This document shows, one piece after another, positions 7,312 through 11,091 of a stretch of DNA of 64,000 bases; position 1 is the first letter of the stretch; each line of letters starts with the position of its first letter. The notes under the pieces are model-generated. The model did no database searches. It had not been told where the DNA came from and was given only the letters and a program-made list of their open reading frames with translations. The position numbers and the translations under genes are program-made. Source of the stretch: Malacoplasma iowae (lineage in GTDB: Bacteria; Bacillota_I; Bacilli_A; Mycoplasmatales; Mycoplasmoidaceae); NCBI RefSeq assembly GCF_900660615.1, contig NZ_LR215023.1, positions 1,116,001 through 1,180,000 on the forward strand, read 5' to 3'.

Positions 7312-9099
7312 CTATTTATCTTTTAATTTTTTTATTTCTATCGCAAGATCTCTTGGTACAATTTGAGACAATTCTTCGATGTCAGCATTCAAAATATTAT
7401 CTAAGGTTTGATATTTAGAAATTAATTTATCAATTCTTTTTTTGCCTAATTTTTTTACTGAATAAAGAGAATTTGTAAATAATGATTTGCTTCTTCTATC
7501 CCTATGAAAACTTATGGCGAATCTATGAACTTCATCTTGCATATTTAGAAGAAAGAAATATAAATTACTTTTTTTATCCAAAGGTATTTCTGTAAAATCT
7601 CATTTGACAATTTTGTCAGTTTTATGTTTATCATTTTTTGCAAGTCCAATTACTGGAACTACTTTATCTAAATTAAGTTTACTTAATGATTCAAGAGCTG
7701 CTTTTACTTGAATGTGTCCTCCATCTACAATAATTAAATTTGGAAGTGATTCTTTTTTTTGTAACACACTACTATATCTTCGATAAATAACTTCTTTCAT
7801 ATACTCATAATCTGATGATGCTTCTTTATTTTTGATAATGTATTTACGATATAATTTTTTATTTTTAGCACCGTTTTCATAAACAATCATTGCAGAAACT
7901 TTATCATCATTAAAAAAGTTAGAGTTATCAAAAACTTCTATTAAATAAGAATCATCTATACCAATTAAATCTTCAAGTTCAGACAAAGAATTTCACTCAC
8001 GTTCATAATCAGAAACAACTTTTAAAAATTTATTTTTAATAAGCAACTGTGCATTTTCAACTGCTGTCAAAAGCATTTCTTTTTTAGATCCTTGAATGGG
8101 ATTTATAAAGTTTATATTTAAAGAATCAGAAAGTTTTTTTAATGACATATTAGAAATAGAAATATATACATTTTTAGGTTTTTCTATAACTATATTTTTG
8201 TAATAATCAAAAACTAGTGTTTCAACTATTTCTTCTACTTCTTCATAAAAAACAGTTGTAATATCATATTTACTTAACAAATTTCCATTGACATATTTAA
8301 AAATAACTAAAGATATTATATTTTCTTTTATTGAAAAACCTATGATGTCCTCATTATTATTTTTAGAAAAAACTATATCTTGTTTTTCAGAAAAAGCTTT
8401 TAAATTCTTTCTTAAATCAAGATATTTTTGAGATTCTTCAAACATAAGTTTTGATGCAAAATATTTTTCTTTTTCTTCCAAACTTTTATCTATATCTTTA
8501 TATTTTCCACTAAAAAAATCATTAATTTTTTTTAAGTGTGGTTCATAATCTTCTTTAGTTATTTTATTTATACATGGGCCAAGGCATAACCCTATATCAT
8601 AGTAAATACATTTAGTTTTAGGAAGTGTTTTACATTTCCTTAATGGAAACATTCTATTTATAAAATTATATAACTCATACTTTTTCATAGTAGGAGTAGC
8701 AAAGGGACCATAATATGTACCTTTTATTTTCTTTTTATTGTCATGACTATACAGTATTCTAGGATGTTCTTCTTTGGTTACAACTATATATGGAAAACTA
8801 TTAGATTCTCTAAGCAATATGTTGTATTTAGGTTTGTATTTTGCAATTAAATTATTTTCTAATAACAAAGATTCATTTTCATTATTAACAACAACAAAGT
8901 CAACGTCACATATTTCTTTAACTAACTTTGAAGTTTTTATATCAACTCTATTATTGAAATATTGTTTAGTTCTATTAGATAAATTTTTTGCTTTTCCAAC
9001 ATATATAACTACACCATTTTTATCTTTTCATAAATAACATCCTGGTTTTTTTGGCGCATTAATTAATTTGTTTTTTATGTAGTCATTATTGTATTTCAT
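7312..9099 (-). CDS. uvrC: Excinuclease ABC subunit C
   Basis: Makes both incisions around bulky DNA lesions in nucleotide excision repair, recruited by UvrB. The 595-residue protein has an N-terminal GIY-YIG domain (APKKPGCYLW...GVVIYVGKAKNL...RTKQYF), a cysteine cluster with CKTLPKTKC and CLGPC, a UvrB-binding coiled coil near 200, the RNase H-like endonuclease domain (IVDGGHIQVKAAL, GLAKNDKHK, EVHRFAISFHRDRR), and a C-terminal HhH region (LGKKRIDKLISKY...IVPRDLAIEIKK). TGA-encoded Trp at several sites. No ribosome site precedes the ATG; it starts 4 bases after the upstream gene's stop, so translation is probably coupled. Confidence 0.95.
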
Positions 9100-9103
9100 G
9101 TTA

Positions 9104-9820
9104 TTAATTATACAATTTATTAGCCCTTTCATATGAAATAAAGAATTCATATTTATTTTCAGTTTTTACAAAATATTTATTATTTTTATAATTAAATTCA
9201 AAATATAAAATACCAATTTTATAAGAGTCTATTTCATCATATCTAAAAGAAAAGAAGTTTAAATTATCATGAATTACCATTCTTCTATCAGTTAAGTAAA
9301 TAGAAGTATTATTTACAATATTTTCTTTTTTATTATTGTTTGATAATTTTAAAAAACTACAATTATCAAAGTTATAATAAGCATTTTCTTCATTTAGGAC
9401 ATGAATTTTTTTAAAGATGAAAAATTTTTTTTCAATATCAATATCTCTTTCTAGCGGAAAATCTACTATAAGTTTTTTTAAATTTCTTTTTTTAGCAAAC
9501 ATAATAGATCTAAAGTGAATAATATACTCTTTTTCCAAAGAATTTAAATGTTTATTTAAATGTAATTTTTTTATTATTTTTTCTAAAGTTCTTATGTATT
9601 TATCAGTGTATATTTCGTTTTGATTAATTCATTGTTTTATTAAACTAAATGAATAAGCTAAATAAAAATCAAATTCTCTTATTTGGATAAATTTTTTTGG
9701 ATTAAAATATTTTTTTTCAATTGTTTTAAGATTAAATTTATCTTTTACTTTTTGAACATATTCATTGTATTTGTTAACATTTTTTATATCTCTAACAAAA
9801 GGTTCTGTAAACAAAGTCAT
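9104..9820 (-). CDS. Unknown 238-residue protein upstream of uvrC
   Basis: I do not recognise this protein. It is Lys- and aromatic-rich with no signal peptide or membrane helix. The last 70 residues (IYLTDRRMVIHDNLNFFSFRYDEIDSY..) resemble bacterial PH-like domains, in which LTDKRL is followed by beta strands; that is a weak pattern match. The frame is intact through one TGA codon and AAGGA precedes the ATG. Only 4 bases separate it from uvrC, so the two are cotranscribed. Directly upstream lies the terminator of a structured RNA (9857-10142), so this operon may be controlled by attenuation at that hairpin. Confidence 0.7.
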
Positions 9821-9856: not shown

Positions 9857-9883
9857 TAAAAAAAGTTAACCATTTAGGTTAAC
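9857..9883 (-). terminator. Intrinsic terminator of the structured RNA
   Basis: Stem AGTTAAC/GTTAACT, extended inward by CT/AG pairs, followed by seven T on the minus strand. It lies 37 bases upstream of the next start codon at 9820. Confidence 0.8.
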
Positions 9884-10142
9884 TACCACTCACCATGTCA
9901 TTTTTATAGTTTTGTCTTAATAAACTTACAGACTCATAAAACTCTCTTATGCTAATCAGCTAAATGATAAACTTTTGTCTTAATAATCTGTTGCATTGTG
10001 TATATGGCACAACCCTTTTACTCGACCACAATATAAGGGCTTTTATGCTGTAATTAGGATACATTCAAATTATAAACCTTACCTAAAACTTAACACAAGT
10101 TCCATCATATTTAAATAAAAGCAAGATTATTTTAATTATCTT
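9857..10142 (-). ncRNA. Unidentified structured RNA, about 285 nt
   Basis: This gene-free stretch is clearly not random. A plausible promoter (TTGTGA at 10178-10173, TTATAA at 10154-10149, 18-base spacer) leads into a transcript with several hairpins: AAGAT/ATCTT at the 5' end, AACTT/AAGTT, AAGCCCTT/AAGGGTT, TTGTG/CACAA, and a CATAA/TTATG hairpin. It ends in a classic terminator. Two TTATTAAGACAAAA units occur near the 3' end. It lacks the marks of tmRNA (alanyl-tRNA-like ends), SRP RNA and RNase P. It could be an independent small RNA or a long riboswitch-like leader of the 9104-9820/uvrC operon. Confidence 0.5.
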
Positions 10143-10250
10143 TATTGCTTATAACACTCGAAAATAAAAATGTCACAATATAATTATCTAACAAATCGAC
10201 AAAAAAAGCAACATAATAATAAATATAAAATTTAGTAAAAAATTATAATT

Positions 10251-11091
10251 TTATGTTACAGCATATATAGCTCCTCAAATACAAGGAAAAATAATTGTAA
10301 TTGGATATGATAACAACACATTAATTATTATTGTTTTTCTTTTTTCATGTTTAAAAAACAAAATGTTTGACAAATGCGAACAAGATGAATAAACTAAATT
10401 TCCATTATAGAAACCAAATCTTTGAGTGCAAAATAAAGTAAGAAATACAACAAACATAACCATTAAAATTGCTGTAAATGGAGTTATAAATTTACTTTCA
10501 TAAACAGCAAGATAACCAATAAAAGGAGCTGTAGCTCCAAATATAAATCACACTACCAAATCTTTTATAACAGAAACTTTTGTTTTTATAGGTTCATAAT
10601 AAAAAGTTAATTTAAAACTAGTCATTGGTTCAGATTTATTGTTTTTATCAAATAAATGTAATATTAAAACACCTAAACCAAACCCCAATAAATTACCTAA
10701 AATATTTGTTCCTATAAGATAAAAAAGCCCCTTAAACAAAACCTCATTATTGTAAACACTTTCATAAACAAATCTTCCAAAAAAGGATGCTATAGACAAG
10801 ACAAAATATGATATGCTTCCCTCATCAACTGTACCTCTCCTTGTAAAAGTTTGTACTAATCATGCAACAACTATTGCTGTTAATAAACACATTACCAAAG
10901 ATATAGGTTTTATAAAAGGAGATTTACTTGTAACATCAGAATAATATTTTTTTAAGACAAAAGACGAAATTAATATAGAAAAAGCTAATACAAAACTTGC
11001 AAATAAAACAACACATAGCAATAGATGTATCTCAATAAGATGACAATATTTTATATGTTGAAGACTTTACTATATTTAGTTCGTTAACCAT
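10251..11091 (-). pseudogene. Six-helix membrane protein with a frameshift near the N-terminus
   Basis: A multi-pass protein of about 280 residues, function unknown. Translation from the ATG at 11091 (MVNELNIVKSSTYKILSSY) loses frame around 11035-11045; the rest of the protein (from EIHLLLCVVLFASFVLAF to GAIYAVT) continues in the next frame and is fully open. The start-to-stop span is 841 bases, one more than a multiple of three. There are six hydrophobic segments in a 3+3 layout. GTNILGNLLGFGLGVL in helix 3 faintly recalls aquaporin half-repeats, but there is no NPA motif. The other frame has no good start of its own. It could be a true pseudogene, a programmed shift or a base error. Confidence 0.6.

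What the first reader, a model, noticed from the sequence alone, without database searches (positions are those of the whole stretch)
9857..10142. Unidentified structured RNA with its own promoter and terminator ahead of the uvrC operon
A gene-free 285-base segment has a promoter (TTGTGA/TTATAA), multiple hairpins, a repeated TTATTAAGACAAAA unit and a strong terminator. It is not tmRNA, SRP RNA or RNase P RNA. It sits 37 bases before a gene, so it could be either a free RNA or a leader regulating an unknown protein and uvrC.
Basis: seen in the sequence. Interest (0 to 1): 0.6.

Follow-up and report, generated by a model that had tools for sequence, protein, structure and literature searches.

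The report
Orphan structured RNA in Malacoplasma
Next to a DNA-repair gene, this wall-less bacterium and one close relative keep an unannotated ~285-base stretch that looks like a real small RNA gene: it has its own start and stop signals and a long folded shape that selection preserves, but its job is unknown and nothing similar was found in any other genome searched.

Summary
On the minus strand, 10142→9857 is gene-free and flanked by a promoter (GTGACA-17-TGT-TATAAG, 10176-10148) and a strong intrinsic terminator (9884-9864; expected 0.0 by chance). It matches no Rfam family, even at E ≤ 10. tmRNA, SRP RNA and RNase P RNA lie elsewhere in the genome; no 6S RNA is found in the genus. One relative, an uncultured Mycoplasma bin, has it at the same place. 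There the promoter is 100% identical and the RNA 91%, while third codon positions of flanking genes are ~62% and neighbouring spacer ~70%, which indicates purifying selection. Of 24 substitutions, 16 fall in unpaired positions of the predicted 220-nt rod-like fold; all 8 in paired positions keep the pair (0.4% of simulated mutants do as well), though no pair changed on both sides. No homolog was found in 318 other genomes of the order or in 84,980 GTDB species (exact 20-mer). Tests for a leader switch, a tracrRNA and a peptide gene were negative or at chance level. Best reading: a lineage-restricted, free-standing small RNA. A transcription-attenuating leader of the 238-aa gene and uvrC is the main rival. 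Transcription and function are not shown.

The parts
10148..10176 (-). Promoter: GTGACA, 17 nt, TGT-TATAAG (extended -10)
   Evidence: 10143-10180 100% identical in G007; Mollicute promoters have a strong -10 box and a partly conserved TGN extension (PMC7745072)
9857..10142 (-). Noncoding RNA, about 285 nt, transcribed 10142 to 9857 (ends inferred from promoter and terminator)
   Evidence: no Rfam match
9929..10141 (-). Long irregular rod-like fold (RNAalifold consensus, alignment columns 7-220), closing stem plus inner rod
   Evidence: 0.4% of simulated mutants do as well; 8 of 8 paired substitutions keep the pair
9978..10079 (-). Inner rod (best supported part; model R1)
   Evidence: alifold -19.6 vs -11.6 +/- 2.8 in simulated mutants, 0.5% as low
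9885..9918 (-). Mostly unpaired tail, identical in both genomes; candidate interaction surface
   Evidence: no substitution between 9918 and 9860; function inferred
9864..9884 (-). Intrinsic terminator AGTTAACC-TAAAT-GGTTAACT followed by a T run
   Evidence: P(hairpin) 0.92 and 0.998 in the two full-length RNAs
9973..9986 (-). First copy of TTATTAAGACAAAA (not conserved as a repeat)
9910..9923 (-). Second copy of TTATTAAGACAAAA
9104..9820 (-). Downstream 238-aa gene of unknown function; predicted C-terminal PH-like fold, helical N-terminus
   Evidence: no Pfam; model of only moderate confidence
7312..9150 (-). uvrC, overlaps the end of the 238-aa gene

Best explanation
A free-standing, lineage-restricted small RNA gene. 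Shown: it has an extended -10 promoter and an intrinsic terminator by sequence, it is under purifying selection along its length, and substitutions avoid or preserve its predicted rod. Inferred: RNA polymerase starts near 10142 and stops at the U-tract near 9857, releasing a ~285-nt RNA. The first ~220 nt fold into a long irregular rod that protects and presents an invariant, mostly single-stranded 3' tail (9918-9885) ahead of the terminator hairpin. The RNA then acts in trans, by base pairing of that tail with mRNAs or by binding a protein. The terminator separates it from the 238-aa/uvrC operon, which would be transcribed from its own start or by leak-through.
For: Identity to G007: promoter 100%, RNA 91%, against 60-64% at third codon positions of the diverged neighbours and 70-76% in neighbouring spacer; conservation rises at the promoter and falls after the terminator and gene start. 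Structure-consistent changes: 24 substitutions, 8 in paired columns all keep the pair, indels all unpaired, although 56% of columns are paired; alifold energy of the 5' 222 columns is reached by 0.4% of simulated mutants. The terminator is the predicted ground state in both species. It is not coding. Orthologs of the downstream gene in relatives lack the element, so the gene does not require it. It is a single copy.
Against: Transcription is not shown. Only two sequences exist, with no double-sided compensatory change. Folding energy alone is weak (z about -1.7). The close, co-directional spacing to the 238-aa gene in both genomes is what a leader would look like. No target or partner was identified.
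Confidence: 0.55

Rival explanations
1. A cis-acting 5' leader: the transcript is the untranslated leader of the 238-aa gene and uvrC, and an unknown signal decides between the terminator (off) and an antiterminator (on).
For: Promoter, structured region, terminator, Shine-Dalgarno-like AAGGA and start codon follow one another within ~360 nt in both genomes. Two conserved upstream stretches, 10094-10082 and 9974-9959, are complementary to CCUAAAUGGUUAACU of the terminator, with duplexes of -11 to -13 kcal/mol against -8.8 for the hairpin. A transcript beginning at 10075 folds best without the terminator in the window sequence.
Against: The complementarity is not beyond chance (9.4% and 8.2% of shuffles do as well). 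In the full-length RNA the no-terminator state is no closer than in shuffles (21% and 64%), and in G007 the terminator has probability 0.998. Orthologs of the gene elsewhere in the genus have no such leader. No known riboswitch or T-box model matches.
Confidence: 0.3
2. A 6S-like RNA: the long rod mimics an open promoter and binds RNA polymerase.
For: The consensus is one long rod with internal loops; no 6S RNA is found in any of the ten genomes of the genus, so the role would be vacant.
Against: No 6S family matches even at E 10. The largest internal loop is lopsided (18 against 4 nt) rather than a central bubble. It is absent from all other Mollicutes searched, unlike a housekeeping RNA.
Confidence: 0.07
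3. A remnant of a gene or mobile element, or sequence conserved only because the two lineages exchanged it recently.
For: A recombination-like boundary exists nearby: identity jumps to 97% from rnpB (11380) rightwards. The element is absent from all other relatives searched.
Against: Genes on both sides of the element are at the old divergence (third positions ~60%), and its conservation edges coincide with promoter and terminator. Substitutions follow the fold. No match in phages, plasmids or viral contigs; single copy.
Confidence: 0.05
4. The tracrRNA of the genome's type II CRISPR system.
For: The genome has a Cas9-like gene and an array of at least 73 repeats.
Against: The RNA pairs with the repeat no better than shuffles (38% and 77% do as well). 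No Cas9 was found in G007, which conserves the RNA. The locus is over 400 kb from cas9.
Confidence: 0.01

Closest known systems
Species- or genus-restricted trans-encoded sRNAs of mycoplasmas (M. hyopneumoniae, M. pneumoniae; PMC5088518)
   Same: Intergenic, unannotated, narrow distribution; PMC5088518 reports that mycoplasma sRNAs are often species-specific
   Different: Longer (285 against 85-167 nt reported there), with a conserved rod and a clear promoter and terminator; no expression evidence here
Terminator-containing 5' leaders of Firmicutes (riboswitches, T-boxes, protein-dependent attenuators)
   Same: Promoter - structured RNA - intrinsic terminator - Shine-Dalgarno - gene order and spacing
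   Different: No known family model matches; no antiterminator better than chance; gene orthologs lack it
6S RNA (RF00013 and its relatives)
   Same: Long rod-like fold; 6S otherwise not found in the genus
   Different: No sequence or structure model match; no central bubble; narrow distribution; ~100 nt longer

Membership tests
Bacterial trans-acting small RNA (general kind) | Own promoter and intrinsic terminator bounding a gene-free segment | tested here: met
Bacterial trans-acting small RNA (general kind) | Sequence and structure conserved above the surroundings | tested here: met
   (two genomes only)
Bacterial trans-acting small RNA (general kind) | Discrete transcript accumulates | not testable with these tools
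   needs RNA-seq or northern
Bacterial trans-acting small RNA (general kind) | Acts on a target in trans | not testable with these tools
   no target search could be decisive here
Transcription-attenuating leader / riboswitch | Mutually exclusive terminator and antiterminator, better than chance and conserved | tested here: not met
   8-9% of shuffles do as well; 21% and 64% of shuffles
Transcription-attenuating leader / riboswitch | Match to a known leader family | tested here: not met
Transcription-attenuating leader / riboswitch | Association with the same gene in several lineages | tested here: inconclusive
   same gene in both genomes that have it, but orthologs in two others lack it and a third contig ends too early
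6S RNA | Match to the 6S covariance models | tested here: not met
6S RNA | Rod with a large central bubble | tested here: not met
   rod, but lopsided 18/4 loop
6S RNA | Binds RNA polymerase | not testable with these tools
   needs co-purification
tracrRNA (type II CRISPR) | Anti-repeat complementary to the CRISPR repeat | tested here: not met
tmRNA, RNase P RNA, SRP RNA | Match to the family model at this locus | tested here: not met
   the real ones are at other places

The most novel reading that the evidence does not exclude
The RNA is a rod-shaped RNA that took over a global role, for example a polymerase-binding role like that of 6S RNA, in a bacterial lineage where 6S RNA is not found; or it is the first example of a new riboswitch class controlling a PH-like protein and uvrC.
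Probability: 0.08. Interest if true: 0.65.

Novelty: new member of a known kind. Interest (0 to 1): 0.36.

Why it matters
Wall-less bacteria with reduced genomes have few recognised regulators, and the published annotation of a related strain lists only three noncoding RNAs. A long, conserved, orphan RNA with clear signals gives a concrete target for asking how such bacteria regulate genes. It also illustrates how quickly RNA genes arise or diverge beyond recognition: it was found in only two of the ten genomes of its own genus that could be searched. If it is a leader instead, it would be an unusual control element in front of a DNA-repair operon.

Tried and rejected
Rfam at gathering and at E <= 10: nothing relevant. 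BLAST hits in G025, G045 and G058: short chance matches, not homologs. First alignment to G007 used the wrong strand, redone. Covariance model of the inner rod over 95 genomes of the family: only G000 and G007. Larger model over 34 relatives: a weak match in G004 (E 0.19) lies inside a glpF-like channel gene, so chance. Same-locus search beside rnpB, the membrane gene and the 238-aa gene in other Malacoplasma: no homolog. Antiterminator: at chance level. tracrRNA: rejected. Coding: the 34-aa frame is kept in G007 (37 aa), but changes fall on codon positions 1 > 3, the reverse of coding. An 11-aa frame ATG ACA TGG TGA ... (M-T-W-W under code 4, 9901-9866) overlaps the terminator; identical in both genomes but without a Shine-Dalgarno, so taken as chance. 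Internal promoter-like TTGTGT-18-TATAAT near 10100-10070: its -10 is TGTAAT in G007, not kept.

Full report
WHERE. The window lies in a single-contig genome of 1,278,574 bases read with genetic code 4. A genus-mate has a contig of exactly 1,358,633 bases, which from memory is the size of M. penetrans HF-2, so the genus is probably Malacoplasma; the species may be near M. iowae (published type strain: 1,315,476 bases, 24.6% GC, 2 CRISPR arrays, 3 annotated ncRNAs, PMC9872633), but this is an inference. Gene order on the minus strand: Ham1-like gene (12386-11778), rnpB (11728-11380), a membrane protein (11021-10251), the RNA (10142-9857), a 238-aa protein (9820-9104), uvrC (9150-7312).

OBSERVATION. 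The gene-free segment, terminator, two-copy repeat and distance to the gene are as described. The terminator is clearly beyond chance. The promoter is best read as GTGACA-17-TATAAG with a TGT extension. Mollicute promoters are known to have a strong -10 box and a partly conserved TGN element with a degenerate -35 box (PMC7745072). Stability alone is not striking.

CONSERVATION. Of 320 genomes of the order, only one other, G007, has the element. An exact 20-mer search over 84,980 GTDB species finds only a 64,605-base contig titled as an uncultured Mycoplasma sp. bin, the same length as the G007 contig; the window's own record may have been left out of that collection. In G007 the gene neighbourhood is the same. 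Position by position, identity is 100% over 10143-10180, 91% over the RNA and 92% over the 36-nt spacer to the gene. It is 76% and 70% in other spacers, and 64%, 62% and 60% at third codon positions of uvrC, the 238-aa gene and the membrane gene. The element is therefore under purifying selection, with edges near promoter and gene start.

STRUCTURE. RNAalifold on the two sequences gives a rod from column 7 to 220, a conserved mostly open tail, and the terminator. 166 of 295 columns are paired, yet only 8 of 24 substitutions lie in them, and all 8 keep a standard pair; all indels are unpaired. Because the structure was chosen on these sequences, I compared with simulated mutants carrying the same substitutions at random places: the full length does as well in 3.3%, the 5' 222 columns in 0.4%, the inner rod in 0.5%, and the 3' part in 30%. 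So the rod is supported and the 3' part is not. No pair has changed on both sides, so strict covariation is absent.

WHAT IT IS NOT. Not a known Rfam family. tmRNA, RNase P RNA and SRP RNA are present elsewhere. 6S is not found in the genus and this is not a match to it. Not a tracrRNA. Not coding. Not seen in plasmids, phages or viral contigs.

FREE RNA OR LEADER. Position favours a leader: 37 nt before a start codon, same strand. I looked for a switch. Two upstream stretches can pair with the terminator, but no better than 8-9% of shuffles. The energy gap between the terminator and no-terminator folds is ordinary (21% and 64% of shuffles). In both full-length RNAs the terminator dominates (0.92, 0.998). 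Orthologs of the 238-aa gene in G006 and G001 have no such leader in the DNA read: in G001 the gene starts one base after its neighbour's stop, and in G006 it follows a phoU-like gene by under 100 bases. In G005 the contig ends just upstream, so that case is uninformative. I therefore put a free RNA at 0.55 and a leader at 0.30.

MECHANISM (inferred). A ~285-nt RNA with a protective rod and an invariant, mostly single-stranded tail (9918-9885) before the terminator, acting in trans by pairing or protein binding. No target is proposed.

NOVELTY. Narrowly distributed small RNAs are common in bacteria, mycoplasmas included (PMC5088518), so this is a new member of a known kind, unusual mainly for its length and clear signals.

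Noticed in passing
window ~11380 (rnpB) rightwards to at least 13200: Identity to G007 jumps from about 62% at third codon positions (left of 11380) to 96-97% overall and 91% at Ham1 third positions (right of it): a sharp boundary suggesting recent exchange or recombination between the two lineages.
   Followed up: partly
window 10980-11090 (minus strand): The membrane protein gene appears frameshifted near its N-terminus: the start MVNELNIVKSSTYKILSSYWDTSIAMCC is in one frame and the rest in another, whereas G007 reads through in one frame. Sequencing error or real mutation.
   Followed up: partly
L042 (G000:C1:692000-711000): Type II CRISPR: a 1167-aa frame that starts like Cas9 and at least 73 repeats GTTTTAGTTCACATGGATATGGTATCAAAACAAAAC, with what looks like an IS30-type transposase gene inserted within the array.
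   Followed up: no
window 9922-9909 and L042: The 3' end of the CRISPR repeat (TATCAAAACAAAAC) resembles the RNA's second repeated unit (TATTAAGACAAAAC; 13 of 14 in G007, TATCAAGACAAAAC). Probably chance; G007 has no detected Cas9.
   Followed up: partly
window 9104-9820: The uncharacterised 238-aa protein next to uvrC has a predicted C-terminal PH-like domain and a helical N-terminus; model confidence is only moderate (pLDDT 67).
   Followed up: partly
L029 2275-2531 (G001): In G001 (probably M. penetrans) the membrane gene is followed by a ~257-nt spacer before a run of three ~100-aa frames that looks like an rplU-rpmA operon; it may hold an L21-type leader, but no Rfam match at gathering score.
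   Followed up: no
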